A DNA stretch of 64,000 bases from Collimonas silvisoli. GTDB lineage: Bacteria > Pseudomonadota > Gammaproteobacteria > Burkholderiales > Burkholderiaceae_D. How positions within the stretch are numbered: the first letter of the stretch is position 1; each line of letters begins with the position of its first letter. Shown piece by piece: positions 7,739 to 35,396 of the stretch. The stretch lies in the NCBI RefSeq assembly GCF_018305005.1, contig NZ_JAGQEG010000021.1, forward strand, positions 1 through 64,000. The letters run 5' to 3'. The position numbers and the translations under genes were made by a program. Below the pieces are notes generated by a model. That model made no database searches, was not told where the DNA came from, and saw nothing but the letters and a program-made list of their open reading frames with translations.

Positions 7739-7752
7739 GCCGGATTCAATTA

Positions 7753-14013: not shown

Positions 14014-14268
14014 ATGGCTATTCAAGAAATGACATTGCAAGAAATAGATGAAGTATACGGCGCCGTTAACTGGCGGCTGGTTTCGCAAGGCTTTATTCAG
14101 ACGTTTGCTGGCAGTGTCGCCGTCGCTGTCGGTGCAGCGTCTGGCCCTCTTGGCTTTGGCCTCGTCGCTGTAGGTGGCGTAGCCATGGTCATGGGCGGAA
14201 CTGCAATGGCTGCTGGAATTGGCGACGCCTCAAACGTAGGAGCAGGTACCGTTCCTAACGCGCCATAA
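14014..14268 (+). CDS. Class II bacteriocin/microcin-like precursor peptide
   Basis: GAGG at 14004-14007 points to the ATG at 14014 and an 84-residue product. The first 17 residues (MAIQEMTLQEIDEVYGA) fit a double-glycine leader, with Gly-Ala at the cleavage point in place of Gly-Gly. The predicted mature peptide of 67 residues is hydrophobic and rich in Gly, Ala and Val, with several GxxxG spacings (GPLGFGLVAVGG, VMGGTAMAAG), typical of membrane-active two-helix bacteriocins. Downstream lie a small membrane protein, an HlyD-type adaptor and a C39 peptidase fragment, the usual partners of such peptides. The locus is AT-rich compared with the chromosome. Antimicrobial activity is inferred, not shown. 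Confidence 0.75.
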   Translation: MAIQEMTLQEIDEVYGAVNWRLVSQGFIQTFAGSVAVAVGAASGPLGFGLVAVGGVAMVMGGTAMAAGIGDASNVGAGTVPNAP

Positions 14269-14354
14269 GTATTTGAAAAACGATATCATTTTTTTTGCGG
14301 CCATTGGATCTCTCCAAAGTCTTTCGATGTCCGCAATTTCTATTAGGAATATAA

Positions 14355-14882
14355 ATGGCGGTTTTCAAAGATAAAAATGGGCAGCATTATTTAGGAGCAA
14401 TCTACCTAAAGAGTGAAAATTATTATTCAGGAAATTTTCTTCCGATATCCGAGAGAAATATCAGATTTGCACTTTCGTTTAGCAAGTTTTTTATTCGAAT
14501 TTGTTTGCTTTCACTTGTGCTTAGCGCACTAGGATTTGTCATTAAATTGTTTAATAACGAAGCCGAAATAGCTAACTATCTCCTAGCTTTTATTGGATTT
14601 GTCATTGCGCTTATTTCTGTTTTTTATTTTATTGTCGGTCCCGTAATTTTATCTAGAAAAAAGACCTCACTAAGTCGTAAAGAGATGGTCTGCTTGCGCC
14701 CGGAATCTACTCTCCTTTATGTAACAACATCTCTTGCTGCGTTTGCGTTGATGATTGATACATCATTTTTAATTTATCCTGATTTTAGATTGAATGATTT
14801 CGTCCTGCTGTTATTTACTTTGATTCCGATCATGGGAGTTTCCGGATTGGCTGCGTATCTTTACTCAAAAAAGATACGGTAG
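14355..14882 (+). CDS. Membrane protein, candidate bacteriocin immunity protein
   Basis: The 175-residue AT-rich gene encodes a protein with about four membrane helices (near 47-65, 75-98, 120-137 and 150-168) and short Lys/Arg-rich cytosolic ends. It directly follows the bacteriocin-like precursor by 86 nt and precedes the secretion adaptor, the position where immunity proteins for membrane-active peptides are commonly encoded. I recognise no family motif, so the immunity role is only positional. Confidence 0.6.
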   Translation: MAVFKDKNGQHYLGAIYLKSENYYSGNFLPISERNIRFALSFSKFFIRICLLSLVLSALGFVIKLFNNEAEIANYLLAFIGFVIALISVFYFIVGPVILSRKKTSLSRKEMVCLRPESTLLYVTTSLAAFALMIDTSFLIYPDFRLNDFVLLLFTLIPIMGVSGLAAYLYSKKIR

Positions 14883-15044
14883 ATGAAGAAGTGAATCACA
14901 GGTAGCAATTCCTTTTCGACTTTGCCGATCAAAGAAAAATAGAACAATTGGTAAAGCCCAATAAAGCTCAATCGCGAGAAATTTCCGATGGTTTAAGCAA
15001 GAGCGAATTGATCTCCGCGATCTAGCTCTCAGAGCTATCGGCAG

Positions 15045-16328: not shown

Positions 16329-16330
16329 CC

Positions 16331-16795
16331 ATGCTCGATAGACTCTCGTTCCGCTTTAACGCAAAACTTCCGCTGATGTTGCAAACCGAGGCCACCGAAT
16401 GCGGCCTTGCATGCCTTGGCATGGTGGCCGGCTATCATGGTTATCGCACCGATCTGGCGACCCTGCGCCGCAGATACCCTATTTCGCTCAAGGGCGCCAC
16501 CCTCGGCAACCTAATCAGCATCGCCAACCAGCTCGAACTAGCTACCCGTCCGCTAAAACTTGATATCGAGGATCTGGCGCAGCTCAAGCTGCCTTGTGTC
16601 TTGCATTGGGATTTCAATCATTTTGTGGTGTTGCAGGAAGTGGGGTCACGTTCAAGGCGGCTTAAATATATACAAGACCTACACGCATGCACCGTAAACG
16701 AGTTGGGTAGTCTGTCAGCGTCCGCAGCGCCTAAACGCCTTCTGTTCTTTTTGGCGAGCACTAGGGGCAATCGGCTTGCGTTCGACAACGACTAA
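16331..16795 (+). pseudogene. Truncated peptidase-containing ABC exporter (C39 domain only)
   Basis: The first about 104 residues are a clear C39 bacteriocin-processing peptidase: LMLQTEATECGLACLGMVAG with catalytic Cys24 and oxyanion Gln18, and HWDFNHFVVL with His97. Homology then stops and about 50 unrelated residues lead to a stop. The catalytic-Asp region, all transmembrane helices and the ATP-binding domain (normally about 600 more residues) are missing. The junction abuts prophage spanin relics on the other strand, so recombination probably deleted the rest. As it stands it cannot export the peptide. A second transporter elsewhere would be required. Confidence 0.8.
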
Positions 16796-20319: not shown

Positions 20320-23300
20320 TCATATTCCAGGGCCATGGGGTTCTGTCTTTCGATCGCTGTCTCGGTGCATGATGAAATCGGCGAACTGCTCCACTGGCAT
20401 GGGTTTCCCAAAATAATAACCTTGCATCAAGTCGCAGGAAATCTCTTTCAAGAAATTAAGTTGCGACTCGGTTTCCACCCCTTCGGCCACCACTTCCAGG
20501 CGCAAGCTGTGCGCCAACGCGATAATACTTTTGACGATGGCGGAATCATCCAGATCCTGGGGCACATCCTGCACAAAGGATTGGTCGATCTTGATCGTGT
20601 CGACGGGGAAGCGTTTCAGGTAAGCGAGGGAGGAATAGCCGGTGCCGAAGTCGTCGATCGTCAGCCGCACCCCGAGGCTGTGCAGCCGATGCAACGCCTG
20701 CAAATTGTCTTCGGCATTTTCCATGAGAGTGCTCTCGGTGATCTCCAGCTCCAGCAACTCCGGCGGCAGTCCGATTTCCGCCAAGACACGTTCCACCGTG
20801 GTGGTGAAATCGTTCTGCAGCTGGCGCACGGAAAAATTCACCGCCACCCGCATGGCCGGCATGCCGGACTTGATCCAGTTCTGCAGCTGCGCGCAGGCAG
20901 TGCGGAGAACCCATCCGCCGATGACGTTGATCAGATCGGTTTCCTCAGCCAGCGGAATGAATTCCTTTGGCCCGACCATGCCGCGAGTCGGGTGATGCCA
21001 ACGCACCAATGCTTCCATGCCGACGATCTCATGGGTATCGAATCGCACTTGCGGCTGATAGAAAACTTCCAGTTCATGCCGGTTCAATGCGTCGCGCAGG
21101 TCGCTCTCCATGCGCATTTTTTCGGAAATGGCTGCCTCCATCGAAGCTTCGAAGAATTTGAAGCCGGAGCTGGCTTTCTTGGCGCGGTACATTGCGGTAT
21201 CGGCATGCTGCAGCAAGGTTCCGACGTCGACGCCGTCCTGCGGATAGAGCGAGATGCCGATGCTGGCGCTGACGAAGATGCCGTGGCCGTCGATTGAAAA
21301 AGGCGCGGACAGAGAATTACAAATGTTCTGGGCGACGGTGCTGGCAGCATTGGGGCCTGTCATGTCGGCCAGCACCACGGTGAATTCGTCGCCGCCAAGG
21401 CGTGCCACGCAGTCGACGATGCGCACGCTGCGCCGGATCCGCTGCGCCACCAATATCAGCAGCTGGTCGCCGATATCGTGACCGAGGGTGTCGTTTACGT
21501 ACTTGAAGCGGTCCAGGTCCAGGAACAGTACCGCCACCGCGTCGCCGGTCAGTCTTGCCTGCTCGACGCTGCGCTTCAGCTGATCGAAGAACATGGCTCG
21601 GTTCGGCAAACCGGTCAACGAGTCGTTGAAGGCCAGGTCGCGCACTCGTTTCTCCGCCCGGTTGGCCTCGATGATGCGCCGCACCCGCTGCGACAGGACG
21701 GCGAAGTGGATCGGCTTGGGGATGTAGTCGCTGGCGCCGGCAGTGAACGCCCGCTCTACCGAAAGATTGTCTTCCAGGCCGGTAATCATCAGCACCGGGA
21801 TATTTTGATGGGTGGGCAGCGCTTGCAGCCGGGCGCAGGCGGTAAAGCCGTCCATCACCGGCATCACCGCATCCATCAGGATCACCTCGGGCTGTATGCG
21901 CCTGAGCACGCGCAGGGCCTGGGCGCCATTTTCAGCCTCTGCCACCCGGAAGCCGTCCCTTAGCAAGGTGTAGCGCAATGCACTGCGGGTGCTGCGATCA
22001 TCGTCCACCACCAGCACCAGGGCGCTCCCTTCCACCGGTTTGGAACTGCGATAGTTTTCGTCGTACACCTCGCCGTAAAGCTGTGCCGCGACATTGTCGA
22101 AGGCTGAACGCAGCTGCGGCAGCAGTGAACCGATTTGACTGGTCTGCTGAATGAGCGCCAGCTCCTCCGCTTCCTTGGCCAATTGCGCCATGCTGGCGGC
22201 GCCCAGGTTGCTGCTGCTGCCCTTGATGGCATGCGCCGCGGCCCGGGCCGACTCTGCATCTTTCTGACGGACCGCCGTTTCCAGTCGTTCCAGGTAGGCC
22301 GGCGTATCTTCCAGGTATGGCGTCACTGCCTGTTGCAAAGCGGGTCCCAGGATTTCCCGCAGCTTGTCGAATACAGTCCGGTCCAGAGGACTGTATCCGC
22401 TCTCGGCCAAGCCAGCCGTCGAGACCCCGGGCAAGGCCGGCGCGGCATCGGTGGAACCCTGGATCAGCCAGCGCTCCAGCTTGTGCCGCAACTCAATCAA
22501 GGTGATCGGTTTTGCCAGGTAATCGTCCATGCCCGCAGCCAGGCATTTTTCCACATCCCCGGCTTGGGTATTGGCAGTCATGGCGACGATGGGCGTGCGC
22601 CGCCCTTCCGGCTCTTCGAAATTACGGATGCGCGAAGTGACCTCGTAACCGTCCATCTCCGGCATATTGCAGTCCATGAGAATGAGATCGAAGCGGCTGC
22701 GCTGGACGGCATCGATTGCTTCCCAGCCATTCGAGGCGGATTCGCAACGGCAGCCGCTGGTGGCAAGCATGCTGCTTGCCACCACCTGGTTGGTGCGGTT
22801 GTCGTCAACCACCAGTACCCGATACTCCCTGGCGGCATCAGGAAGCTTGCCGGGAAGATTGGCCGCAGGCGGCTCGACAGCGGCTGTTTGCTCGCCTGGC
22901 AACAGATTTCGGATCGCGTCCAACAGACGATTCAAGCGCAGCGGTTTGCCCAGATGGCCGTCGGCTTCCAAAGGCTTGTCGCTCTTCGGCGAGCCGTAGC
23001 GCTCTAACAGCAACAGACGGGTCGACGACAGCGCCGGATCGGACCGGATATGCCGAGCCAGGGCCGGATCCGCATCCTTGCCTTCGAGCGTACTGCGGTC
23101 GACGATGACCAATGCGTAGGGCGAGTGTTTGGTCCGCCCCAGTTCAGCCGTCAGCTCGGCAGCGCTGCAGACCGCGTGGCAAGACATGCCGTGACGCGTC
23201 AGGCTTTGCTCCAGGAAGTTGCGTACGACTTCGCTTTCTTCGGCCACCAGCACCCGCACCCCGGACAAGGCGTCTTCCGCGGTCGCCATGACCTGCGCCT

Positions 23301-24798
23301 CGCCCGCTTCGCAAACGATCGTGAACCAGAAGGTGGACCCTTGTCCGGGTTGGCTGACGACGCCGATCTCGCCGCCCATGAGCTCCACCAGTTGCTTGCA
23401 AATTGCCAGGCCGAGCCCGGTGCCGCCGTATTTGCGGGCGGTGGCAATGTCCGCCTGGGCGAACGATTCGAACACATGCCTGGCCGCGTCCTGGTCCATG
23501 CCGATGCCGGTGTCGCTCACCTCGACCCGCAGGCCGAAGCCATCGCCGCTGCCCTCGGTGCGCGAAATGCGCACCGCCACCTCGCCTTGTTCGGTGAATT
23601 TCAAGGCATTGCCGACCAGGTTGATCAGCACTTGCCGCAAGCGCATCGAATCGCCTTTGATCCGATCGGGGACGTCGGGAGCCAGCAGGTAGCCTAGCTC
23701 CAGCCCACGTTGCTGTGCCTGCTTGGCCAGCAGGTCGAGAATTTCCTCCACCAGCTTGCGCAAATCGAAGTCGATCTTCTCCAATACCAGCTTGTTGGCT
23801 TCGATCTTGGAGAAATCAAGGATGTCGTTGATTAAATCGATCAGCGTGTGGGCTGAGTTCCAGGCCACTTCGACGCATTCCTGCTGGGGTTTGGTGAGAC
23901 GCATTTCCTTGAGCATGTCCAGCATTCCCACCACCCCGGTCAAAGGGGTGCGCACTTCGTGGCTGACGGTGGAAGCGAATTGCGCCTTCATCATCGCCGC
24001 GTGCAGCGCCTGGTCGCGCGACTGTTTCAATTCCGTTTCCCGCTCTTCCAGCACTGCCATCATTTTATTGAAGGCCTGGGCCATGTCGACCAGGTCGCGC
24101 GGTCCCTCCGGAGCGGCGCGCATGCCAGACTCGCCGGCTTCGGCGCGCCCCATCAGGCCGGACAAGGCGTTCAATGGCCGGATCAAATGGCGCGCCAGAA
24201 GACGCATGACTCCTAGCAGGATAAGCGCGAAGGACAGCGTAATGGCCAAATTGACGAGCAGCAAGGACAGCACCAGGCGATTCATGGTCCCCTTGCCGAG
24301 CACGATATGGACATACCCAAGGAGTTGCGGCTTGAAGTCCTGCAGCTCGAACGGCGACGCCCCCTCATGGCCCTGGTAGACGGGTGCGCCGAAACGCCAT
24401 TCATCGTCGGTTTCCAGCTCCAGCATGGCTTGGGTCAGGGCGCGCTCCGGCCGCAATGCCTGATTCGGCTTGACTATCGCGCCTCGCTTGGTTTCTGACA
24501 GCAGGACCTGGTGGGCCGCATCGGTGACCTCTACCTGTTTCACGTCGGGGAAGGCGAGCGTGGTAGCGACTTCATCGCGAACATTGTCGGCGGAATGGTA
24601 AAGCAAGGCCAGGGTGCTCTGGCGTGCCAGATTCTCAGCGATATGCTGGCCCTGCTCTATCAGATAGCCTCGCATGCGCCGGCTGGTCTCCCACGAATTC
24701 ATCAAGGACGAGAACAGCGCCAGGCCCAGGATCGAGGCGGTGACAATCGCCATCAGCTGGCGGCGGAATCCGGTGCGGCGCAAGTAGGCTTGCAACAT
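20320..24798 (-). CDS. Giant hybrid histidine kinase with REC, Hpt, GGDEF and EAL domains
   Basis: The 1492-residue protein has, in order, TM1 (about 15-31), a periplasmic sensor, TM2 (about 175-198), HAMP, HisKA with His280 in STVSHEVRTPL, and an HATPase with GGTGLGLAI near 458. A receiver-like domain with acid substitutions (514-630) follows, then a canonical receiver (Asp709), an Hpt domain (His856), a second canonical receiver (Asp976), GGDEF (1135-1139 intact, with an RIVD inhibitory site) and EAL (1262-1264 intact). It could therefore relay phosphate within one chain to control both making and breaking c-di-GMP. It lies 136 nt downstream of the binding-protein gene, on the same strand as the TonB receptor, suggesting shared input. 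Confidence 0.93.
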   Translation of the reverse strand: MLQAYLRRTGFRRQLMAIVTASILGLALFSSLMNSWETSRRMRGYLIEQGQHIAENLARQSTLALLYHSADNVRDEVATTLAFPDVKQVEVTDAAHQVLLSETKRGAIVKPNQALRPERALTQAMLELETDDEWRFGAPVYQGHEGASPFELQDFKPQLLGYVHIVLGKGTMNRLVLSLLLVNLAITLSFALILLGVMRLLARHLIRPLNALSGLMGRAEAGESGMRAAPEGPRDLVDMAQAFNKMMAVLEERETELKQSRDQALHAAMMKAQFASTVSHEVRTPLTGVVGMLDMLKEMRLTKPQQECVEVAWNSAHTLIDLINDILDFSKIEANKLVLEKIDFDLRKLVEEILDLLAKQAQQRGLELGYLLAPDVPDRIKGDSMRLRQVLINLVGNALKFTEQGEVAVRISRTEGSGDGFGLRVEVSDTGIGMDQDAARHVFESFAQADIATARKYGGTGLGLAICKQLVELMGGEIGVVSQPGQGSTFWFTIVCEAGEAQVMATAEDALSGVRVLVAEESEVVRNFLEQSLTRHGMSCHAVCSAAELTAELGRTKHSPYALVIVDRSTLEGKDADPALARHIRSDPALSSTRLLLLERYGSPKSDKPLEADGHLGKPLRLNRLLDAIRNLLPGEQTAAVEPPAANLPGKLPDAAREYRVLVVDDNRTNQVVASSMLATSGCRCESASNGWEAIDAVQRSRFDLILMDCNMPEMDGYEVTSRIRNFEEPEGRRTPIVAMTANTQAGDVEKCLAAGMDDYLAKPITLIELRHKLERWLIQGSTDAAPALPGVSTAGLAESGYSPLDRTVFDKLREILGPALQQAVTPYLEDTPAYLERLETAVRQKDAESARAAAHAIKGSSSNLGAASMAQLAKEAEELALIQQTSQIGSLLPQLRSAFDNVAAQLYGEVYDENYRSSKPVEGSALVLVVDDDRSTRSALRYTLLRDGFRVAEAENGAQALRVLRRIQPEVILMDAVMPVMDGFTACARLQALPTHQNIPVLMITGLEDNLSVERAFTAGASDYIPKPIHFAVLSQRVRRIIEANRAEKRVRDLAFNDSLTGLPNRAMFFDQLKRSVEQARLTGDAVAVLFLDLDRFKYVNDTLGHDIGDQLLILVAQRIRRSVRIVDCVARLGGDEFTVVLADMTGPNAASTVAQNICNSLSAPFSIDGHGIFVSASIGISLYPQDGVDVGTLLQHADTAMYRAKKASSGFKFFEASMEAAISEKMRMESDLRDALNRHELEVFYQPQVRFDTHEIVGMEALVRWHHPTRGMVGPKEFIPLAEETDLINVIGGWVLRTACAQLQNWIKSGMPAMRVAVNFSVRQLQNDFTTTVERVLAEIGLPPELLELEITESTLMENAEDNLQALHRLHSLGVRLTIDDFGTGYSSLAYLKRFPVDTIKIDQSFVQDVPQDLDDSAIVKSIIALAHSLRLEVVAEGVETESQLNFLKEISCDLMQGYYFGKPMPVEQFADFIMHRDSDRKTEPHGPGI

Positions 24799-24934: not shown

Positions 24935-26047
24935 CTAAGGCTCAGGAAAAACAAAATCGAAACTGCGCTGCAGCCGATAGTCGATGTTCAAACCAATGTG
25001 GCTGGCGGTACGCAAATTCACCGCCGTGAGCACCTCGCGCAACGGCGCCACGCCGCGCTTGCGGGACTCTCCTGCAAGTACGCCGAGAGCGGTATTAGCC
25101 AAGTCGTGGCCCAGCCCCAGGTTGTTCGGATATAAGGCAAACAGGGCGCCCTTCCTGACGTGCAGGAAGCTGCTGGAAAAAAACGGCACGCCATGGCTCC
25201 AGGATTCCTTGAGGACCAGCGGCAAAATCGTGTCCTCGTCCACCGTGGTGGCGTCCTGGAGCAGCCAGATCGCGTCAAGCCGGCTGTCGGCTGCGGCAAA
25301 AGCGGCTTCGTATAGACGCGCCGCCGAGGCCAGATCGTGCGCTTCATGGATCACCAATTCGAAGCCGAGAGTCTTGGCTGCTTCGCGCGCCAGTTTGATC
25401 AGCCAATCGTTGTGCTGCGGATCGTAGACTACGGTTATCCTTTTTATCCCGGGCAGCAGTTTTTTCAGGAGCGCGAACAGCAGGGCCGGATCAGGTGTCA
25501 GGCTGATGCCGGCCAGGTTGCGGCTCTCGCTCTCGGGCACCGAAAGCACGCCGCCGACCACCACCGCGATATCCCGCTCCAGCCCGGATGCGGCCTTCAG
25601 CCCTTGACGCCCGAGCGCAATCACCACCTTGACGCCGCCGCGCGTCAACTGCGCGCTGAGCTCGGCCGGATTGCTGTTCGGTCCGACCGGGTAAGTGTTC
25701 ACCGGAACTTTGGCTTGCTCCTGGATGCCTTCGATAATCTTGGCAAAGATACTGCGATAGGGTTCGCCGATATCCGGATAAATCACTGCAATCGCGCCTT
25801 TGCTGTCGCTGATGTCCTGCCGCTTTGGCGCGGCATCCAGGGCGGCCAGCACGATCGGCGTGGATTCATTGTGCAGCATAGGCGCTTCGGCAGCGCTTTC
25901 ACTCCAATTCTGGAACCGGTCTTTTACGACTCCGACGCGCTTACCGAGGTCAGGCGGCGCACCCTCCTGCTGGCTGGCATGGACGAGCGTACATGCCAGC
26001 AGCAGGACCAAGCCGGTCTCGATCCGCGATGCGGCTGCATGTCTCAT
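24935..26047 (-). CDS. Periplasmic ABC-type substrate-binding protein (ABC_sub_bind type)
   Basis: From the ATG at 26047 the product has a signal segment (GLVLLLACTLVHAS) and a two-lobed binding-protein core. GAIAVIYPDIGEPYRSIFAKI, GGVKVVIALGRQGLKAAS, KRITVVYDPQHNDWLI, and LDAIWLLQDATTVDEDTILP match the TrpX/ABC_sub_bind family pattern. No ABC permease or ATPase is nearby. Instead it sits between a TonB-dependent receptor and a hybrid kinase, so it probably serves as a periplasmic sensor or relay for the kinase rather than as part of a transporter. Longer in-frame starts (to 26185) overlap the receptor gene and lack a signal peptide. Confidence 0.82.
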   Translation of the reverse strand: MRHAAASRIETGLVLLLACTLVHASQQEGAPPDLGKRVGVVKDRFQNWSESAAEAPMLHNESTPIVLAALDAAPKRQDISDSKGAIAVIYPDIGEPYRSIFAKIIEGIQEQAKVPVNTYPVGPNSNPAELSAQLTRGGVKVVIALGRQGLKAASGLERDIAVVVGGVLSVPESESRNLAGISLTPDPALLFALLKKLLPGIKRITVVYDPQHNDWLIKLAREAAKTLGFELVIHEAHDLASAARLYEAAFAAADSRLDAIWLLQDATTVDEDTILPLVLKESWSHGVPFFSSSFLHVRKGALFALYPNNLGLGHDLANTALGVLAGESRKRGVAPLREVLTAVNLRTASHIGLNIDYRLQRSFDFVFPEP

Positions 26048-26075: not shown

Positions 26076-28187
26076 TCACAACTTGTGTTGAAACTGCACA
26101 TAGAAGGTGCGGCCCGGGAGCGGCAAATCAAAAGGAATGTTGCCCGGAGCGAAGCTCGGATCCCTGGCGTCCCGATTGAACACATTCAGCACCGTGGCGC
26201 TGACGTTCCAGTCGCCGATCACCTTCTCTTTCCTCACATTCAGGTCTAGCGTCGTATAGTCGGCAATCGGCGGCCGGGTGTCGCCCGGCTGGCGCTTGCG
26301 GTCAGCCACATGGTTGACCGTGGCGCCCAGCTGCCAGAGCGGGGCAAAGCGCCAATCGGATCGAGCGAACAGCCGTTGGCGGGGCGCCAGGCCGGCGTCT
26401 TGGCCGCTAGTCTGATCGGTGGAGTGTTGCAGCGAGTAGTTGCCGGTTAGCCGCAGATTGCGCGTTGCATCCCAAATCGCTTCCAGTTCCAGGCCGCGGC
26501 CGGTCTGGTCGCCGGTATTTTGCGCGGTGGAGCCGGTCGACGGGTCGGCATTCGGCACAAACTGAATGATGTTGTGCATGCGGTAGTAGAACAAGCTCAG
26601 GTTGGTTTGCAGCGTTTGAGTGGGCTGCCATGCGAACGCCAGCTCGCGGGTGACGATGGTTTCCGGTTTAAGGCTGGGATTGCCTATCGTGACCGGATTG
26701 TTGATGCTGTATTGCTCGGTGTATGACGGCGCCCGGAAAGCGCTGCCATAGAGTGCCTTGACGGAAAAATTATAAGCAGCATCCCACACCAGTGCCAGAC
26801 GCGGATTGACCGTGCTGCCGAAATCGGAATAGTGGTCCTCGCGCACGCCCGAAGTCAAGGTCCAGTCTTTGGCCAGGGTCCACTCATCCTGCACAAACGC
26901 ATAACCGACAGTGCGTTTATGCGGCGTCAGGAATACGCTGCTGGTGCCGTTGACATCAACGATACTGCCCAAGGGAACGAACTCGACCCCAACCCCGGGA
27001 ACCGCCACGATCCTGAAGTTCTTGCTCTCGCTGGTCTGGTACATGTCTTCAATCCGGAAGCCGGCGCCGAGCCGGATCCGGTGCTTGTCGAAGCCGGTAT
27101 AGAAGCCCGACAGGCTGAATTGGCTGTCGCGTTCAGCGTGTCCGGGATTGCCGATGACGCCGTTCGGGAAGGCTCCGGCGAAGGCGCCCGGCGGAAACAG
27201 CACCGTTGCCGGCGATGCCTGCAGCTCGTTGACATTCTTCACCGATGCCTGCGCGGTGACATCCCAATTGCGAAAGAAATTGGGATTGGAGTAGGTCAGA
27301 TCGGCATTCCAGCGTTGCGCTCTCACCCGTGCCTGGGGATCCAGGCTGCTTGCCAGGCCGACACCGGTGCCGGTTTCCTGGTTCTGGTAACCGGCACGAA
27401 AACGCCATAACTCGTAGGCGATATCGACCTGCATATCCAGATTGCCGCGCATCATTTGCTCGTGGCCGGGGGCCAGGGAAGCATGGGTTCCGAAAATTTT
27501 GTCGAGATTGGTTTGCGCATCTGCGTCTATCGTTTTATTGGCGCCGTTGGTATGGCCGCCCCCCAGATAGAAAGCCACGTCCAGCGGACCCATTTTGCCG
27601 CCATGCTGGAACCAGGCGTCGTAGCTACCGAACGATCCGGCCCGCACGCCATACTCGGTGCCGTTGATGTCGGCCGCGGTCTTGGTGATGATGTTGATGA
27701 CCCCGGCGAAAGCATCGGCGCCATACAGCGCAGATCCAGGGCCGCGGATGACCTCGATACGGGCTATGTGTTCGACCGGCACGCCGCCCCAGGCCAGGTC
27801 GCGGTTGCCAAGAAAGGCGTCATTGACGGGGATGCCGTTGATCAGCATCAATGTCTGCGGGTTGTATAGGGTGGTGATGCCGCGGAACGAATATATCGGA
27901 TCGTTGTACAAACCTGAGTAGGAGACATGCAGGCCGGGTACGCTTTCCAGCACTTGATTCATATTCGTCGCCCCCATGGCCTGGATATCCTGGTCGGTAA
28001 TCACCGAGGCTACCGCCGGCGCCCGGGAAATGTCTTGCTGGCTGCCGGTGGCGATACTGACGAAAGCTTTCTTCCCATATGAAAGGGCCAAGTCGTCTTC
28101 TTCGTTATTTTGCTGAGCCGAAGCCACGGCGGCGCTCAGACACAGGACGGCAGCGCATGGAATTTGAGATTGCCAGTGTTTTTTCAT
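26076..28187 (-). CDS. TonB-dependent outer-membrane receptor
   Basis: The 703-residue protein has a signal peptide (CAAVLCLSAAVASAQ) and a plug domain with VASVITDQDIQAMGATNMNQ, the RIEVIRGPGSALYGADAFAG motif and GVINIITK. A 22-strand barrel ends in the C-terminal aromatic signature ...GRTFYVQFQHKL. The plug lacks an added N-terminal signalling (STN) domain. It imports or senses an unknown ligand using TonB energy. It is the first gene of a same-strand set with the binding protein (28 nt downstream) and the giant kinase. Confidence 0.93.
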   Translation of the reverse strand: MKKHWQSQIPCAAVLCLSAAVASAQQNNEEDDLALSYGKKAFVSIATGSQQDISRAPAVASVITDQDIQAMGATNMNQVLESVPGLHVSYSGLYNDPIYSFRGITTLYNPQTLMLINGIPVNDAFLGNRDLAWGGVPVEHIARIEVIRGPGSALYGADAFAGVINIITKTAADINGTEYGVRAGSFGSYDAWFQHGGKMGPLDVAFYLGGGHTNGANKTIDADAQTNLDKIFGTHASLAPGHEQMMRGNLDMQVDIAYELWRFRAGYQNQETGTGVGLASSLDPQARVRAQRWNADLTYSNPNFFRNWDVTAQASVKNVNELQASPATVLFPPGAFAGAFPNGVIGNPGHAERDSQFSLSGFYTGFDKHRIRLGAGFRIEDMYQTSESKNFRIVAVPGVGVEFVPLGSIVDVNGTSSVFLTPHKRTVGYAFVQDEWTLAKDWTLTSGVREDHYSDFGSTVNPRLALVWDAAYNFSVKALYGSAFRAPSYTEQYSINNPVTIGNPSLKPETIVTRELAFAWQPTQTLQTNLSLFYYRMHNIIQFVPNADPSTGSTAQNTGDQTGRGLELEAIWDATRNLRLTGNYSLQHSTDQTSGQDAGLAPRQRLFARSDWRFAPLWQLGATVNHVADRKRQPGDTRPPIADYTTLDLNVRKEKVIGDWNVSATVLNVFNRDARDPSFAPGNIPFDLPLPGRTFYVQFQHKL

Positions 28188-28293: not shown

Positions 28294-29100
28294 TTATTCT
28301 TGCTGCCAAAGGCGCCACGCCGGCCCCTCATAGCGCAGTTGCGAACATCGCAGTGGAAACGTCGCACCTTCGGGACGCTGGCTGGCTTCCAGATAACACG
28401 GGGGCATGCCCGCCATGAATGAAGGCAGCAGGAACAGGTAGCACTCGCGCGGCGAGAACCCCATATCGAGCGGAATCGCCACGACCACGCCGCCATAGTT
28501 GATCGGCAGCTGTCGTCCCATCCTGGCCAGGCCTTTCTCTATTTCAAACGCCAATTGCAGATACGGGCCTTGCGCTATGTGCTCGTGCTCCATGCGGGCC
28601 AGAATCGCCGGTATCCGTTCGTCTACTTGAAGCGTGGCTACCGGCCGGCCATATCCCAGGATGCGCTTGTGCAGCTGCAGCTCCTGTTCCAGGATTGCTT
28701 GCAAGGCTTCCCCCGCAAGCATGCGCTGATGGGCGCGAACCAGGAAATCCGCCGCGGCGAATTCCGGCTGCCAGCCATAAATGCTTGCTTCCGAAACGGC
28801 AATCGCGGCTGCGACGCCAAGCGCGCCGGTACTGCGGGCGCTACCTGCCAAGGCAGCGACGCGATTGTTCCACAAGCGGGGATCCGGATAGCTGGTGTAG
28901 GTCCAAAGAGCATGCAGCAGCGCCGTTTGCTGCGGTGAAAAACGGCGGCCGGTAATGCCGAAGGCATACAGTGCTATCCAATCCATGTCTTTCAGGTCGG
29001 CATGCAGATCGTGGCCCCGGAACACCGCCCGCTCTCCCGGAAAACATGCGCCCATGCGGGTGCGCAAGGGCCCTTCATAATCCAGCAAAGCGTTGCTCAT
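28294..29100 (-). CDS. Citrate-synthase-fold protein B (degenerate active site)
   Basis: The 268-residue product keeps citrate-synthase architecture: YAFGITGRRFSPQQTALLHA, RSTGALGVAAAIAVSEASIYGWQP (where the HGG region should be), RILGYGRPVATLQVDERIPA (replacing PGFGHRVY), and a C-terminal PLRCSQLRYEGP like the RPRQLYTGP end. Both catalytic histidines of true citrate synthases appear replaced (Tyr and Arg). The ATG at 29100 overlaps the stop of the partner gene. It probably pairs with protein A to make a heteromeric enzyme or binding unit. The reaction is not known. Confidence 0.65.
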   Translation of the reverse strand: MSNALLDYEGPLRTRMGACFPGERAVFRGHDLHADLKDMDWIALYAFGITGRRFSPQQTALLHALWTYTSYPDPRLWNNRVAALAGSARSTGALGVAAAIAVSEASIYGWQPEFAAADFLVRAHQRMLAGEALQAILEQELQLHKRILGYGRPVATLQVDERIPAILARMEHEHIAQGPYLQLAFEIEKGLARMGRQLPINYGGVVVAIPLDMGFSPRECYLFLLPSFMAGMPPCYLEASQRPEGATFPLRCSQLRYEGPAWRLWQQE

Positions 29101-29918
29101 GCATGCTCCTTCGAGAAAGCCGGGCCAGGATCGTTTTCGAGATCCAGTTCGAAGAAAGGAAATTGGCGAAAACCTTGCTTGCCTTGTTCCAGCGCGTGGG
29201 CGGCGGCGCCGGGCAGCCGCAGCAGCAGGGCCAGCATCTCGCCCTCGCTGGGAGAGAAATCCAGATCCGCGAGCGCAGCAGCGGCCACGCCTGTCATTGC
29301 CAGCGGATGGCCGGCGGCGGTTTCCAAAGCGGCCTGCTCCTGCGCCAGCCACGCCAGGCGCCCTGCCGGCATGATCTCAACCAGATGCACCAGGGTCTGG
29401 CGCACCGGGTTGGCGCATTGTTTGCCGTAGGGATCGAAGCCAGGCGGATGTTCCGGCTCAGGCCACACCTGCTGGCGGGTCGGCGCAGCCGGACCAGCCA
29501 GGCTGGAGCGCCAGGCTGCGAGTTCAGTGCCGTTATTCTGCCAAGCCTCCAAAGCCAGGAAGACTTCGCGGGCGCCGCCGTAGGAACCGGCGCCGACAGC
29601 CAGCGCCGCCATCAGTACCGAGGCGGCAGTTGAACCGCCGACCCCGGCCGCCATCGCGGCATGCACCGAGGGATCGCGCGGCCCCGGGTTGGCTAGCGCC
29701 ACAGCCAGAATTTCCAATGCGGCAGCGACGTTCGGCGTTGGGCGCTCGCCTTTGAACAGCAGATACAGGTATTCGGTGTAGCGGGCTTTGCCAAGCAAGT
29801 CGCCGTAGACGTCGTAACCCCGGCAGTAGCAGGCTGCGGCAGCGAAAGGATTGTCCGCTTCCGGCTCTTCGTGCCAGATGCTGGTGCGAATGCTGTTGGG
29901 ATTTTCCTGGCCGCTCAT
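29097..29918 (-). CDS. Citrate-synthase-fold protein A (citryl-CoA-lyase-like)
   Basis: The 273-residue product shows the small citrate-synthase/citryl-CoA-lyase pattern: CYCRGYDVYGDLLGKARYTE, YLYLLFKGERPTPN, GSTAASVLMAALAVGAGSYG followed by GAREVF, then PPGFDPYGKQCANPVRQTLV, and a C-terminal large-domain helix MLALLLRLPGAAAHALEQGK. The usual HGGA and PGFGHR catalytic histidines read YGGA and GFDPYG. It is preceded by the SDR gene and overlaps gene B by 4 nt (translational coupling). A CoA-thioester aldol or lyase role is plausible from the fold but unproven. Confidence 0.68.
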   Translation of the reverse strand: MSGQENPNSIRTSIWHEEPEADNPFAAAACYCRGYDVYGDLLGKARYTEYLYLLFKGERPTPNVAAALEILAVALANPGPRDPSVHAAMAAGVGGSTAASVLMAALAVGAGSYGGAREVFLALEAWQNNGTELAAWRSSLAGPAAPTRQQVWPEPEHPPGFDPYGKQCANPVRQTLVHLVEIMPAGRLAWLAQEQAALETAAGHPLAMTGVAAAALADLDFSPSEGEMLALLLRLPGAAAHALEQGKQGFRQFPFFELDLENDPGPAFSKEHA

Positions 29919-29944
29919 CTGATCTCCTGTCGTTGTAGATACTG

Positions 29945-30694
29945 CTAAAGCAGGCTCATGCCGCCATCGACAACAATTTCCTCGCCGACCACGTATGCCG
30001 AGTCTTCCGAAGCCAGGAACAGGGCAACCTTGGCCACCTCTTGCGGACTGCCGAAACGCTTGCTCGGCGATTTTTGCTCGATCCCGCTTTTTATTTCCTG
30101 GGCCATGTCTGGCGGCAGGCCGAAGCGGTCGAAGATGGGCGTGGCGATGGGGCCGGGGCTGATCGCATTGATCCGGATCCCGCGGCCGACAAGTTCCAGG
30201 GCCAGCGATCGCACTAGCGAGCGCAAGGCAGCCTTGCTGGCGCCGTAGACGCTGAAATTGGGCGAGCCCAATTGGTTGGTGATGGACGTGGTGACGATAA
30301 TGGAGGCGTTGGCGCCGAACAAAGGCAAGGCTTTCTGGATGGTGAAGAATACCCCTTTGAAGTTGATCCCCATGATGTCGTCGAACTGGGTTTCGGACAC
30401 CAGTTCAATCGGCGCTGCAGTTGCAACGCCGGCGTTGACGAACAACACATCCAAGCGCTTGAAATGGCTTTCCACCTGCTGCATCAAAGCGGCGATTTCG
30501 GCCAGATTTCCAGCGTCGCTACGGATGATCAGGGTTTCACTGCCCAGCTCCTCTCGGGCACGCGCCAAACCGTCCGGGTCGCGCCCCGTGATCGCCAGCC
30601 GGGCGCCGTGTTCCAGGAACAGTTTTGCGCTGGCTAAACCGATGCCGCTCGAACCGCCGGTGATCAGCACCGTCTTCCCTGTGAGTTTATCCAT
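29945..30694 (-). CDS. Short-chain dehydrogenase/reductase (SDR)
   Basis: The 249-residue classical SDR has the cofactor loop TGGSSGIG, VNAG in the fourth strand, catalytic Ser in VTTSIT, the YGASK active-site pair, and the terminal EEIVVDGGMSLL. It should oxidise an alcohol or reduce a ketone with NAD(P)H. The Arg in the TGRDPDG loop region favours NADPH. The ATG at 30694 has GAGGA at normal spacing, whereas one at 30700 abuts it. It lies between the TPP enzyme and the citrate-synthase-like pair, so it may reduce an acyloin or keto product of the TPP enzyme. Confidence 0.9.
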   Translation of the reverse strand: MDKLTGKTVLITGGSSGIGLASAKLFLEHGARLAITGRDPDGLARAREELGSETLIIRSDAGNLAEIAALMQQVESHFKRLDVLFVNAGVATAAPIELVSETQFDDIMGINFKGVFFTIQKALPLFGANASIIVTTSITNQLGSPNFSVYGASKAALRSLVRSLALELVGRGIRINAISPGPIATPIFDRFGLPPDMAQEIKSGIEQKSPSKRFGSPQEVAKVALFLASEDSAYVVGEEIVVDGGMSLL

Positions 30695-30703
30695 TGTCAT
30701 TCC

Positions 30704-32563
30704 TCATAGATTGCCGGCTAAAACGCGCATACGAACATTCATCGGCGGCACCTCCTCGCCATCGACGAGCACGTCCAGCAGCGTTGGCCCTTGGCGCTTG
30801 CACATGGCGGCGATATCCAGCTTGACCAGATCCTCCGGGGCGCGGATGGTATGGGCTTCGGCACCCATGGCGCGCGCCAGGGCGGCGAAATCGGTAGGAG
30901 GCAAATCGCAGCCGATACGTTCGGCACCGGCCAGCCGCTGGCCGTGCTTGACCATGCCCAGGGCCTGGTCGTTGAGGACGACGAAGATGACGGATAGCTT
31001 CTCGGCGACCGCAACCGAGATTTCCTGGCCATTCATCAGAAAGCTGCCGTCGCCGGTGATGCACACCACCGGCACTTTCGGATTGCCGGCTGCGGTGCCG
31101 ATGGCGCCGCCGATGGCCCAGCCCATCGGCGCAAAGTTCATGATGGCCCGCATCCAGCCGCCATAGGTCTTGCGGCGCCCCGGCGCGCGCGCGCTGCCGC
31201 CGCCGCCTTGCCGCCTTTCAGCTACGCGGCGGTCCTTGGGCTGCAGGTAATGGATAGCCCAGGCAACGCTATTGCCGGTATCGGCGAGAAAACGGGTGGT
31301 GGGCGGAAATAGCCGGCCCAGCTCGCCCATCAGCCGCTGCGGCAGGATCGGTATGGCGCTGCTAGTGTACTTATCCGGACTCGCCAGCATGGTATCCGGC
31401 TCCCAGTTGTCGCTATGCTGCTTGCGCACGAAGCGCCGCTGTTCATATTCGAAATTTCCGGCTCGCCGGACGTCATGCATATGCTTGTTCAGCCGGTTGA
31501 AGATCGACAGTATGCGTCCCCGCATGTGAAAACTCGCCATCGGGGTGTGGGTCAGGTGTTCTTCGGAATCGTCGATATGCACCAGCCGCGCATTGAGCAG
31601 ACTATCGCTCCAGCCACTGCTGTTCCACTCACCCATGCCGGTACCGATGGCCATGATCAGATCGACCGACTTGTCGCTCAGAGCCGCTTCTGCCGAAGCG
31701 TGGCCGGCGAAGCCGAACACGCCGCGGAAAAGCGAGTGGCGCGGACTCACCAGGCCCTTGCCGTCCGGCGTGGCGATCACAGAAGCGCCGGTCAAATCGG
31801 CGAACTGGAGAATTGCGCCGATAGCCTCGCCGCAGCCGGCGCCAATCAGCACAACGATATTTACGGCCCTCGACAACATCAGTTGCAGTGTTGCCAGCGC
31901 TTCGTCGTCAACCGCCGATGACGGCTGCAGCAGCGCCTGCAAGTCATAAGAGGGAGCCAGTTGCGTGTTGGTGCTGCGAAATACGTCCACCGGCATGCTT
32001 AAATGCACTGGCCCCATCGGCGCCCTGATGGCGCGCTGCAACGCAGTCATGAGTTTGTTCTCGAACTGCTGCGGGTGGGACACCAGCGAATTGTAGTGAG
32101 TACAGTGCTGCAGCATGCCCAGCGTATCGATTCCGGTACAAGTGGATTCCTGCAGCGGATGTTTGCCGAAGGTAGGCAAGGCCGGCTGCGCCGTGATTAC
32201 CAGCAAGGGAATATTGTTGTCGTAGGCGCAAGCCACACCGGTGATCAAATTGGTGGAGCCGGGCCCTGAGGTGGCGCAGCAGACACCGATTTTGCCGGTT
32301 TCCCGGGCATAGCCGTCGGCCATATAGGCAGCTCCCGCTTCGTGGCGCGCCAGGATGTGGCGCACGCCGCCACGGCGGCCGCTTCTGGCAAGCGCATTGA
32401 AAAGCGGCTCGATAGCGCCGCCGGGAACGCCGAAGACATATTCGATTTCCATTTGCTCAAGATAGGCCACCAGCAGGTCTGCTATTTCCATAGGCGGCTC
32501 GGGAGGCAGCTCCAGCTGCTCGCCTAACATATCGTTGTACACCTGCAAATTATCGGCACTCAT
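30704..32563 (-). CDS. ThDP-dependent enzyme, acetolactate-synthase-like
   Basis: The 619-residue protein has the three-domain acetolactate-synthase/benzoylformate-decarboxylase layout. The PYR domain contains the catalytic Glu in ILARHEAGAAYMADGYAR. The middle domain has VLIGAGCGEAIGAIL. The PP domain contains the ThDP motif GDGSFLMNGQEISVAVAEKL through FVVLND. A basic, glycine-rich insert (QGGGGSARAPGRRKT, about residues 465-490) precedes the PP domain and is unusual. GGGAGA before the ATG at 32563 sets the start. It is the first gene of the SDR/citrate-synthase-pair operon. Decarboxylation and carboligation of a 2-keto acid is expected; the substrate is unknown. Confidence 0.82.
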   Translation of the reverse strand: MSADNLQVYNDMLGEQLELPPEPPMEIADLLVAYLEQMEIEYVFGVPGGAIEPLFNALARSGRRGGVRHILARHEAGAAYMADGYARETGKIGVCCATSGPGSTNLITGVACAYDNNIPLLVITAQPALPTFGKHPLQESTCTGIDTLGMLQHCTHYNSLVSHPQQFENKLMTALQRAIRAPMGPVHLSMPVDVFRSTNTQLAPSYDLQALLQPSSAVDDEALATLQLMLSRAVNIVVLIGAGCGEAIGAILQFADLTGASVIATPDGKGLVSPRHSLFRGVFGFAGHASAEAALSDKSVDLIMAIGTGMGEWNSSGWSDSLLNARLVHIDDSEEHLTHTPMASFHMRGRILSIFNRLNKHMHDVRRAGNFEYEQRRFVRKQHSDNWEPDTMLASPDKYTSSAIPILPQRLMGELGRLFPPTTRFLADTGNSVAWAIHYLQPKDRRVAERRQGGGGSARAPGRRKTYGGWMRAIMNFAPMGWAIGGAIGTAAGNPKVPVVCITGDGSFLMNGQEISVAVAEKLSVIFVVLNDQALGMVKHGQRLAGAERIGCDLPPTDFAALARAMGAEAHTIRAPEDLVKLDIAAMCKRQGPTLLDVLVDGEEVPPMNVRMRVLAGNL

Positions 32564-33008
32564 GTCGAAATCTCCCTTGGTGGCAGGAAGCTTGCTGTGA
32601 TTCGTCAACGCGCATCGGACATCGTCATGGACATGCGATGCAGAATGAAAACATTTCTTAATAGAAATTATTGTAATCCTCTCTTCTCAAACCGCAAAGC
32701 GAATAATCAAATCGAACTGCTCTGCTCACTATCAAAATCAAGGCGGCGTGGTGACGTGGTGTTTAAGGCAGCAAGTCGTAACGGCTAGGAAGATAGATGC
32801 AGAACGCTGCTTGCGGTCATCTTTAGTTATTGCAATGAGTCCGTTATGCCAACACTGCTGGATGGCTTGGCTGAGATGTCGCCACCTATCAAAAATGACA
32901 GGTGTTTTTCTGATGCCGAATGCATTATTGTCAACAGACAACTAATGTTTTCTTGGGCGGATTTCCCGTAGAGTGCGACGGCTTTTTTAAATAAAAAAGG
33001 AGAAATCA
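32564..33008. other. Intergenic region between divergent accessory operons
   Basis: About 440 nt separate the TPP-operon start from the divergent GspE-like gene. I see no gene, RNA or strong terminator. AAAAGGAG just before 33009 is the ribosome site of the ATPase. Promoters for both directions should lie here, but none stands out. Confidence 0.5.
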
Positions 33009-35396
33009 ATGCATGCCGATTTAGGGTGGCCATCACCGCCACACTTCGAGTTGATCTCTACATCCCCCACAACGAACGACGGCAGCACGCCCTGCATCAT
33101 TACCTTGAACGACGGCCATCGGAAAGTCGGCAACCTGCTCAGGTTTGACCAGGAGGCATCAATTATCGAGTTCCAGCCGGAGCGCGCCGTCGACAGTCTT
33201 CGTATCGGCGTTTCCACCCTCAAAAGCATCCGTTTAACGGCGCCGACAGAGCTAAAAAAATTGGAACTGCCTTTAACGGTAGAAATGCAAGCAGGCCCGT
33301 CCGTCTCCGCCAAGAAAAAATGCATGATTTTCTTCAAGGACGGAGAGCATCTGATTTCTGAAACCGTAGGTTACGTTCCTCGTGAAATCGGACTTTTTCT
33401 ATTTCTTGTCAGTGCTGGCAACAGCGTTTTTCGCTGGTTTATTCCGACCGAAGCAATTGCCAGCTATCAGATTGGCGACAAGCTCGGCAAGATGCTGGTG
33501 GACGGGAAAATTGTGTCGTCGGAGGCTGTCGATGCCGGCTTGAAAAAACAAACCCAGCTGCGGGAATCCAAGCTGGGGGAGTATCTGCAGCTGGAAAGCC
33601 TGGTCACAAAAGATCAAGTGGAAATGGCTTTGCAAAGACAGCGATCGTTGCCTCATCTCAGACTTGGGGAAGCGCTGATTCAAGAGAACCTGATTACTGA
33701 GGAACAACTGGCGCAAGCGCTTGAGAAGCAGGCAGAGGACAGGAAGTTGCACTTGGGCGAAGTTCTTATCGCCATGGGTGTCGTCGACAAGGAAAACATC
33801 AAGAGGGTATTGGCGCAAAAACTTGGCATTCCTTTTGTTACGCTGCCCGACTTTCAGTTTGATTTGGGCTTGACCAAGATCGTACCTGCCGACTTGGTCC
33901 GCAAATATACAGTAATGCCGCTATACCGGACCCAATCACGTATGGTGGTAGCGATGGAAGACCCTTTGTCGTCGGAGGCCTTGAAGGCATTGACGTTTTG
34001 CAGCAAGCTCGCAATCGACCCCGTCATGGCGTCCGAGGCCAGCTTGGGCGTTGTCATTTCGAAATTTTATGGGGCACAGGGAGAACGTCAGGATATCGCC
34101 GAATTCGTTTCCAAATTAGACGAAGGCAGCAGCATCGAAGCTGGCCAGGTTGTGCATGAGGTAATTACAGAATCCGACAATGTCGTGGTGCGCCTGGTCA
34201 ACAAGATCATCCTTGACGCATTTGAACAAGGCGCCTCCGACATTCATATCGAAGTCATGAAAGGAAACGAAGCTACCCAGGTCCGCTTTCGCAAGGACGG
34301 CGTTATGGTCGATTATTCGGACATTCCGGCAAACTACCGCAATGCCTTAATTTCCCGCCTTAAAATCATGAGCCGCCTCGACATTTCCGAGAAACGGCGC
34401 TCGCAGGACGGGAAGCTGAATTTCGAGCAATTCGGTCCGGCGAAAATCGAGCTTCGGGTTGTTACCATGCCGACTGCCGAAGGCCTGGAAGACATCGTCA
34501 TGCGGATACTTACCGCTCCCAAGGCCTTGTCCCTGGATGCATTGGGCCTGTCTCCCCGGATACTGGAAGGACTCAAGAAACTCGCCGTCAAACCCCACGG
34601 CCTGCTATTTGTGTGCGGCCCGACCGGGTCTGGCAAGACGACAACCTTGCATTCCTTGCTCAGTCATATCAATACGCGCGAACGCAAAATATGGACGGTC
34701 GAAGATCCGATAGAAATTACCCAGAAAGGCCTGCGGCAAGTCCAGGTCCACGCAAAAATCGATTTGACTTTTGCGACCGTATTGCGCAGCTTCTTGCGCG
34801 CGGATCCGGATGTCATCATGGTCGGGGAAACACGGGATCCGGAAACCGCCAAGACCGTCATAGAGGCGTCGCTCACCGGTCATCTGGTGTTTTCAACCTT
34901 GCACACCAATAGTGCCGTCGAAAGCGTCATCAGGCTATTGGATCTCGGTATCGATCCCTTCAATTTTGCGGACGCCCTGCTGGGGGTTGTCGGTCAACGG
35001 CTGTCACGTAAATTGTGTACAGCCTGCCGTCAGCGCTACGCCGCCACGGACGGGCAAATCCAGATGCTTGCCTATGAATACTGCTTGGAAACCCAACTCC
35101 AGCCTGCCGAGATAATAGCGGAGTGGCGCAAGCAATATGGCGACGACGGCAACACACTCGCTTTATACAAGGCGTCCGGCTGTGAAAAATGCAGCGGGAG
35201 CGGCTACAAAGGCAGATTGGGAGTACATGAATTGCTGCTTAATACCCCGGCTATCAAGAAAAAAATTCATGCGAGAGCGAATGTCCCGGATATCTTGCAA
35301 ACCGCTATCGAGGAAGGCATGCGTACCTTAAAACAAGACGGAATCGATAAGATATTTCAGGGCTTGACCGATTGGGAGCAAATAAGAATGCTCTAG
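33009..35396 (+). CDS. Orphan GspE/PilB-type secretion ATPase with MshEN repeats
   Basis: The 795-residue protein has Walker A GPTGSGKT (537-544), the Asp box DIHIEV, Walker B near DVIMVGETRD (about 601-610), the His box HLVFSTLHTNS, and zinc cysteines C670/C673 and C725/C728. These are all signatures of type II secretion and type IV pilus assembly ATPases. Ahead of these lie four LGxxL repeats (about 157-260) of the MshEN type, which in relatives bind c-di-GMP. An extra N-terminal beta-rich domain (about 10-150) is unusual. No inner-membrane, pilin or secretin partners are adjacent, so it may power a system encoded elsewhere. Confidence 0.88.
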   Translation: MHADLGWPSPPHFELISTSPTTNDGSTPCIITLNDGHRKVGNLLRFDQEASIIEFQPERAVDSLRIGVSTLKSIRLTAPTELKKLELPLTVEMQAGPSVSAKKKCMIFFKDGEHLISETVGYVPREIGLFLFLVSAGNSVFRWFIPTEAIASYQIGDKLGKMLVDGKIVSSEAVDAGLKKQTQLRESKLGEYLQLESLVTKDQVEMALQRQRSLPHLRLGEALIQENLITEEQLAQALEKQAEDRKLHLGEVLIAMGVVDKENIKRVLAQKLGIPFVTLPDFQFDLGLTKIVPADLVRKYTVMPLYRTQSRMVVAMEDPLSSEALKALTFCSKLAIDPVMASEASLGVVISKFYGAQGERQDIAEFVSKLDEGSSIEAGQVVHEVITESDNVVVRLVNKIILDAFEQGASDIHIEVMKGNEATQVRFRKDGVMVDYSDIPANYRNALISRLKIMSRLDISEKRRSQDGKLNFEQFGPAKIELRVVTMPTAEGLEDIVMRILTAPKALSLDALGLSPRILEGLKKLAVKPHGLLFVCGPTGSGKTTTLHSLLSHINTRERKIWTVEDPIEITQKGLRQVQVHAKIDLTFATVLRSFLRADPDVIMVGETRDPETAKTVIEASLTGHLVFSTLHTNSAVESVIRLLDLGIDPFNFADALLGVVGQRLSRKLCTACRQRYAATDGQIQMLAYEYCLETQLQPAEIIAEWRKQYGDDGNTLALYKASGCEKCSGSGYKGRLGVHELLLNTPAIKKKIHARANVPDILQTAIEEGMRTLKQDGIDKIFQGLTDWEQIRML

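What the first reader, a model, noticed from the sequence alone, without database searches (positions are those of the whole stretch)
28294..32563. Uncharacterised operon: ThDP enzyme + SDR + two coupled citrate-synthase-fold proteins
A carboligase-type enzyme, a reductase and two overlapping citrate-synthase-like genes form a tight minus-strand operon with no known pathway that I can assign. The combination suggests acyloin or hydroxyketone formation followed by CoA-linked chemistry, possibly a secondary metabolite or signal.
Basis: inference. Interest (0 to 1): 0.8.

Follow-up and report, generated by a model that had tools for sequence, protein, structure and literature searches.

The report
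Predicted signal-synthesis operon with sensors
Four linked enzyme genes, including a pair of citrate-synthase look-alikes that have lost the usual catalytic residues, travel across distant bacteria together with sensor genes, which suggests that they make a small molecule that bacteria release and then sense, of a chemistry not yet described.

Summary
In detail: ThDP enzyme, SDR and two citrate-synthase-fold proteins form a tight minus-strand operon (32563-28294). They are not accidental neighbours: ThDP relatives accompany CS1 in 44 of 46 GTDB loci. The unit is larger than reported: TonB receptor, PF04392 binding protein and hybrid kinase with GGDEF-EAL follow and co-travel. In 294 genomes of the family all 29 with CS1 also have the binding protein, and 20 more have the receptor side alone. 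In a phylum sample 4 of 10 CS1 genomes lack the binding protein; three of these carry a different sensor kinase beside the enzymes.

CS1 and CS2 have the citryl-CoA-lyase fold but lack the triad that 17 ordinary relatives keep, so citrate chemistry is unlikely. The ThDP enzyme keeps its catalytic residues; its nearest solved relatives are BbmA/CsmA, CybE-type formers of alpha-hydroxy-beta-keto acids. Some loci add sulfotransferase and APS kinase. In Collimonas a lux-box palindrome, also found before the genome's own luxI, lies upstream.

Best reading: synthase plus sensor of an undescribed diffusible metabolite, AHL-controlled in Collimonas. Product and direction (made, not degraded) are inferred, not shown.

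The parts
30704..32563 (-). ThDP enzyme (CybE/CsmA-like carboligase)
   Evidence: TPP_enzyme N, M, C domains; best solved relatives BbmA 268 bits and CsmA 232; Glu75, GDG504-506 and Asn531 in 44 of 44 aligned sequences
29945..30694 (-). SDR reductase
   Evidence: adh_short_C2; relative present in 24 of 46 loci
29097..29918 (-). CS1, citrate-synthase-fold protein without the canonical triad
28294..29100 (-). CS2, second citrate-synthase-fold protein without the canonical triad, start overlaps the stop of CS1
26076..28187 (-). TonB-dependent receptor
   Evidence: Pfam Plug and barrel; relative in 38 of 46 loci
24935..26047 (-). Periplasmic binding protein PF04392 (likely start 26047, signal-peptide-like N terminus by eye; longest frame starts at 26185)
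   Evidence: relative in 35 of 46 loci; in 29 of 29 CS1 genomes of the family
20320..24798 (-). Hybrid sensor kinase: sCache_4, HAMP, HisKA, HATPase, receivers, Hpt, GGDEF, EAL
32884..32903 (-). lux-box-like palindrome upstream of the operon
   Evidence: same pattern before the genome's own luxI

Best explanation
The seven-gene directon 32563-20320 is a synthesis-and-sensing module for an undescribed small diffusible molecule. Proposed working: (1) the ThDP enzyme decarboxylates one 2-oxo acid and couples it to a second, giving an alpha-hydroxy-beta-keto acid or its acyloin [inferred from nearest characterised relatives and intact ThDP motifs]; (2) CS1 and CS2, encoded side by side with overlapping genes, act as an obligate pair, probably a heterodimer, that uses the citrate-synthase fold for a step other than citrate chemistry, for example condensation or ring closure with an acyl donor [fold predicted and triad loss shown; pairing and reaction inferred]; (3) the SDR, where present, reduces a carbonyl, and in some genomes a sulfotransferase with APS kinase adds sulfate [genes shown, steps inferred]; (4) the molecule leaves the cell, returns to the periplasm through the TonB receptor, is bound by the PF04392 protein, and the loaded protein sets the hybrid kinase, whose GGDEF-EAL output changes c-di-GMP [domains and co-occurrence shown, relay inferred]; (5) in Collimonas the operon is switched on by the AHL/LuxR system through the palindrome at 32884-32903 [site shown, regulation inferred].
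For: Not accidental: of 46 loci, ThDP relatives in 44, CS2 in 44, TonB in 38, SBP in 35; ThDP on the same strand just upstream of CS1 or SDR-CS1 in 40 of 46; TonB, SBP and kinase all above 60 bits in 31 of 46. Asymmetry in 294 family genomes: CS1 strong (E<1e-50, my cut) in 29, SBP strong in 49, both in 29 (Fisher p 2.7e-27, not corrected for kinship); in 14 receptor-only loci fetched SBP adjoins a kinase in 14 and no ThDP/CS relative above 60 bits is seen in any. In distant genomes of the phylum the trio ThDP-CS1-CS2 persists in 9 of 9 fetched strong-hit loci while the sensor changes: TonB-SBP-kinase in 5 of 9, a giant Ser/Thr-kinase/histidine-kinase protein plus response regulator in 3 of 9. 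Biosynthetic tailoring: sulfotransferase in 7 of 46 loci, APS kinase in the 2 frames tested. [quoted passage not shown] Lux box.
Against: No product, ligand or phenotype is shown. No exporter is part of the conserved set. The ThDP family also holds lyases, so the flow could run the other way. In the phylum sample 4 of 10 strong CS1 genomes (G065, G085, G117, G121) have no SBP match, so the TonB-SBP receiver is not universal. The ThDP of L012, L014, L015 and L021 (32-37%, opposite strand) is only a little closer than own-genome paralogues (26-29% over 250 aa or more) and may be a different enzyme. Pairwise-distance correlations of ThDP with CS1/CS2 are moderate (0.43-0.50 over 38 loci; 0.70-0.71 over 35 after I dropped those four). 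The lux box is Collimonas-only: present in L002-L004, and no site with 12 or more of 16 matches in the other 41 of 44 loci scanned. TonB receptors usually serve nutrients or metallophores (general knowledge).
Confidence: 0.58

Rival explanations
1. Catabolic uptake module: the TonB receptor imports an environmental compound, the binding protein and kinase sense it, and ThDP enzyme, SDR and CS pair cleave it (ThDP lyase and citryl-CoA-lyase-like retro-aldol direction).
For: CS1/CS2 are nearest to a lyase; TonB receptor in 38 of 46 loci; receptor-only genomes could be sensing the compound without using it.
Against: No inner-membrane permease or sulfatase is part of the conserved set, while sulfotransferase and APS kinase are found in some loci; distant loci add SDR/MaoC, FkbH-like, methyltransferase and AMP-ligase genes, which look biosynthetic; the triad needed for lyase chemistry is missing.
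Confidence: 0.22
2. Metallophore system: the enzymes make a small hydroxy-carboxylate chelator that the TonB receptor takes up and the kinase monitors.
For: TonB receptor in the operon; citrate-like enzymes can make chelators (general knowledge).
Against: No Fur-box-like site above chance in the window or L002-L004 (recalled consensus; L005 reaches its best score in 12 of 200 shuffles); no permease; output domains are c-di-GMP enzymes.
Confidence: 0.12
3. Internal metabolic operon: an acetolactate-like side pathway whose neighbours only share regulation, without a secreted product.
For: ThDP enzyme belongs to the acetolactate-synthase superfamily; SDR is generic.
Against: Far below the curated acetolactate-synthase cut-offs; sensor coupling in the family survey and sensor change in distant loci.
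Confidence: 0.08

Closest known systems
CybE / CsmA / BbmA ThDP enzymes of furanolide pathways (cyanobacterin); ScyA of scytonemin
   Same: Same ThDP superfamily, nearest solved relatives by sequence; CybE couples two 2-oxo acids (passages in PMC12395478); ScyA models match but far below cut-off
   Different: No CybF-type 3-oxoacyl-ACP-synthase gene among the seven (CybF annotation from PMC8777810 passages); a CS-fold pair and sensor genes instead
Citryl-CoA lyase (6hxp; PRK06224 models) and ATP-citrate-lyase core
   Same: Fold and length
   Different: Both paralogues lack the His/His/Asp triad and are below the curated cut-offs
LuxP-LuxQ type relay (comparison recalled)
   Same: Periplasmic binding protein without permease beside a hybrid sensor kinase with a periplasmic cache domain
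   Different: Outer-membrane TonB receptor added; GGDEF-EAL fused to the kinase; ligand unknown
CqsA/LqsA alpha-hydroxyketone signalling (search listing)
   Same: Possible acyloin-type signal with kinase sensor
   Different: CqsA/LqsA use PLP (recalled); here ThDP plus a CS pair
Collimonas AHL system (LuxI/LuxR)
   Same: Possible upstream controller: same palindrome before luxI; AHL production and luxI/luxR homologues in Collimonas reported (PMC11288634 passages)
   Different: Separate locus and chemistry

Membership tests
Acetolactate synthase (TIGR00118 and kin) | Score above curated cut-off | tested here: not met
   284 bits against 538.35; the 25 models shown of 55 are all below cut-off
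[quoted passage not shown]
   (44 of 44 sequences, window included, frames over 450 aa); meaning of the motifs recalled
[quoted passage not shown]
   BbmA 268 bits, CsmA 232, next an acetolactate synthase 185; scores are modest, so subfamily membership stays open
[quoted passage not shown]
   needs an enzyme assay
Furanolide (cyb) gene cluster | CybF-type 3-oxoacyl-ACP-synthase gene beside the ThDP gene | tested here: not met
   no such domain in the seven genes
Citryl-CoA lyase / citrate synthase | Fold | tested here: met
   (predicted models)
Citryl-CoA lyase / citrate synthase | Catalytic His (HGG), His (GHR), Asp (N[VI]D) | tested here: not met
   controls 16/17, 17/17, 16/17; CS1 (33): Ser/Tyr/Leu with His in 4, gap, Thr/Ser/Pro; CS2 (29): Ile/Val/Leu107 (Tyr108 in the pairwise alignment), Arg152 in 29, Ala/Gly; roles of the residues recalled
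Citryl-CoA lyase / citrate synthase | NCBIfam curated cut-off | tested here: not met
Quorum-sensing-like synthase/sensor module | Synthase genes coupled to sensor genes across genomes | tested here: met
   29 of 29 family genomes; neighbourhoods; but 4 of 10 CS1 genomes of the phylum sample lack the SBP, three of them with another sensor kinase
Quorum-sensing-like synthase/sensor module | Diffusible product that activates the sensor | not testable with these tools
   needs metabolomics and a reporter assay
LuxR/AHL regulon | lux box upstream, like that of the genome's own luxI | tested here: met
LuxR/AHL regulon | AHL-dependent transcription | not testable with these tools
   regulon paper doi 10.1093/femsec/fiac100 not held
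Siderophore system | Fur box upstream | tested here: not met
   recalled consensus: window and L002-L004 at chance; L005 reached in 12 of 200 shuffles

The most novel reading that the evidence does not exclude
A new class of bacterial chemical signal: its synthase is a ThDP carboligase plus an obligate pair of citrate-synthase-fold proteins that have lost the citrate triad and do a new reaction, and its usual receiver is a TonB receptor, periplasmic binding protein and c-di-GMP hybrid kinase. The core is shared by beta- and gammaproteobacteria and Geobacter relatives, is sulfated in some genomes, is overheard by receiver-only species, and sits below AHL quorum sensing in Collimonas.
Probability: 0.4. 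Interest if true: 0.92.

Novelty: new variant of a known kind. Interest (0 to 1): 0.74.

Why it matters
If true, a widespread unnamed signal or metabolite of environmental proteobacteria becomes directly findable: synthase genes, receptor genes, natural receiver-only strains and a regulatory site are all defined here. It would also give the citrate-synthase fold a use without citrate chemistry, and link AHL sensing, a second secreted molecule and c-di-GMP in a fungus-feeding genus.

Tried and rejected
Considered and set aside: accidental adjacency (rejected); furanolide pathway membership (no CybF-type gene); YerE/JanthE-type carboligases (JanthE called YerE-like in PMC12247030 passages; no sequence comparison made); the citrate synthase family protein of C. 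pratensis named in PMC12542777 (passage; not compared by sequence). No CS1 match in the plasmid collection. All ten literature searches were seen as listings, with passages read from six papers; none described the module, but most subscription papers are not in that library. Seventeen weak hits of the phylum search served as controls; three further checks of such loci (L088-L090) showed no ThDP relative. The promoter and terminator scan was at chance level. Distance correlations were inconclusive.

Limits: the kinase count (41 of 46) takes any kinase relative at E<=1e-6 and is inflated; one search uses over 60 bits. Genome searches score only a few first-look candidates per genome, so absences may include misses; 9 of the 20 receptor-only family genomes and 5 genomes of the phylum sample were checked by fetching the locus (at most 20 kb). 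In four of the five distant TonB-SBP-kinase loci the kinase match is weak (48-52 bits); Pfam was run on one of them (L081). In some searches the starts are those of the longest frames. In one search I left out control frames longer than 345 aa and identical copies.
Full report
What is there. The window comes from a Collimonas-like genome (closest loci are Collimonas; own genome G000, contig C133). Four minus-strand genes, 32563 to 28294, encode a ThDP enzyme, an SDR and two citrate-synthase-fold proteins, with gaps of 9, 26 and -4 nt. Pfam and NCBIfam support the first two. CS1 and CS2 have no Pfam match and only sub-threshold citryl-CoA-lyase matches. Predicted structures place both on the citryl-CoA-lyase fold. 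The directon continues with a TonB receptor, a PF04392 binding protein and a hybrid kinase with GGDEF and EAL domains.

Are they together by accident? No. A CS1 scan of GTDB genomes gave 46 loci, among them Collimonas, Massilia, Noviherbaspirillum, Pseudoduganella, Azonexus, Rhodoferax, Sulfuricella, Methylomonas, Geobacter and Pelotalea. Of the 46, ThDP relatives occur in 44 (one a fragment, four divergent in sequence and strand), CS2 in 44, TonB in 38, the binding protein in 35, the SDR in 24. ThDP is on the same strand just upstream of CS1 or SDR-CS1 in 40 of 46; it is on the opposite strand in 4 (L012, L014, L015, L021) and unseen in 2 (in L032 the contig ends there; L007 has about 2.5 kb upstream without it). 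In 31 of 46 TonB, binding protein and kinase all score above 60 bits. L006 carries CS1-CS2-CS1-CS2-CS2 and L011 two ThDP-CS1-CS2 sets.

Distant relatives. In a sample of 398 genomes of the phylum, 37 match the CS1 model at E<=0.001; 10 match with E below 1e-30, one of them our own. The nine others were fetched: ThDP and CS2 relatives adjoin CS1 in 9 of 9. Five also have TonB, binding protein and kinase, four of these in the order TonB-CS1-CS2-ThDP-SBP-kinase. Three have instead a protein of 1,727 to 1,771 aa next to a response regulator; Pfam of the one in L085 shows Ser/Thr kinase, AAA, GAF, HisKA_3 and HATPase domains, and the other two were recognised by eye from similar starts. In the ninth (L083) an AMP-binding ligase follows. 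In the same sample the binding protein is found in 6 of the 10 strong CS1 genomes and missing in 4 (G065, G085, G117, G121), three of which are those with the giant kinase. So the enzymes usually keep the company of sensors, but not always of the same sensor.

Synthase-receptor asymmetry. In 294 genomes of the family, CS1 is strong (E<1e-50) in 29 and the binding protein in 49; all 29 CS1 genomes are among the 49. Of the 20 receptor-only genomes I fetched 9, plus 5 genomes of the phylum sample: SBP adjoins a kinase in 14 of 14, TonB is near in 11 of 14, and no ThDP/CS1/CS2 relative above 60 bits is seen in any. In G606 the receptor genes lie far from the synthase genes (L147, L148). Receivers without makers, and within the family no maker without a receiver, is what one expects of a sensed product; it does not by itself exclude a sensed nutrient.

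The enzymes. ThDP: the Glu, GDG and Asn motifs are conserved in 44 of 44 sequences. Best solved relatives are BbmA (268 bits) and CsmA (232), then acetolactate synthases (185 and less). [quoted passage not shown] that BpmA is the PDB's BbmA is my reading. The primary paper was not held. CS1/CS2: aligned with 17 ordinary citryl-CoA-lyase-like proteins, the three catalytic positions of the controls (16/17, 17/17, 16/17) are not kept in 33 CS1 or 29 CS2 sequences. CS1 keeps Arg234 (33/33) and His241 (32/33), where CS2 mostly has Phe and Cys; CS2 keeps Arg162 (29/29), where CS1 has His, Tyr or Asn with one Arg. This split retention fits an obligate pair, but a heterodimer is inferred.

Tailoring. 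A sulfotransferase-like gene recurs in 7 of 46 loci; Pfam confirmed it in the 6 proteins tested, from 5 of these loci. APS kinase was found in the 2 frames tested, L030 and L038. This supports biosynthesis with optional sulfation.

Regulation. The palindrome ACCTGTCATTTTTGATAGGT lies at 32884-32903; with 3 mismatches allowed the window is expected to hold 0.16 matches and holds two sites, each read on both strands. It is present in L002, L003 and L004; in the other 41 of 44 loci scanned, L005 included, no site reaches 12 of 16 matches. In the whole genome the pattern gives 14 forward and 13 reverse matches against 2 and 2 for the control pattern. One lies between the luxR-like and luxI-like genes, about 60 nt before luxI. 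That the palindrome looks like a lux box is recalled; its place before luxI is the test. AHL production in Collimonas is reported (PMC11288634, passages). No Fur-box-like site exceeds chance in the window or L002-L004.

Conclusion. The best-supported reading is a synthesis-and-sensing module for an unknown diffusible molecule, probably AHL-controlled in Collimonas. Catabolic and metallophore readings remain possible at lower probability. None of the ten literature searches turned up a description of the module, but that library is partial.

Noticed in passing
window 13728-13747 and 13948-16795: Second lux-box-like site, upstream of a small protein whose start resembles a double-glycine leader peptide (by eye), an HlyD-family secretion protein and a Peptidase_C39 frame: looks like a bacteriocin export cluster possibly under AHL control.
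   Followed up: partly
G000 loci L163, L165, L168, L169: Other lux-box-like sites lie beside genes for a phosphoesterase, an S1/P1 nuclease, a family 85 and (weakly) a family 79 glycosyl hydrolase, a plausible AHL regulon.
   Followed up: partly
L163:2116-3717 (-): A YopJ-family serine/threonine acetyltransferase domain (Pfam) beside one of these sites in the same genome.
   Followed up: no
window 33009-35396 (+): Divergent T2SSE/MshEN ATPase gene; MshEN is a c-di-GMP-binding type of domain (recalled). Of the 46 loci only L003 shows it near the operon.
   Followed up: no
L008, L009, L013, L018, L019, L020, L026: A family of long frames stands divergent to the operon in seven loci; the one tested (L026) is aconitase B. 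Chance, shared history or a citrate link is open.
   Followed up: no
G000:C209:9248-9748: The luxI match is reported with one in-frame TGA; an open frame of 184 aa starts at the expected place. Not examined further.
   Followed up: no
L031 around 6781-8930: In Noviherbaspirillum denitrificans the operon looks degraded: ThDP fragment, no CS2 found.
   Followed up: no
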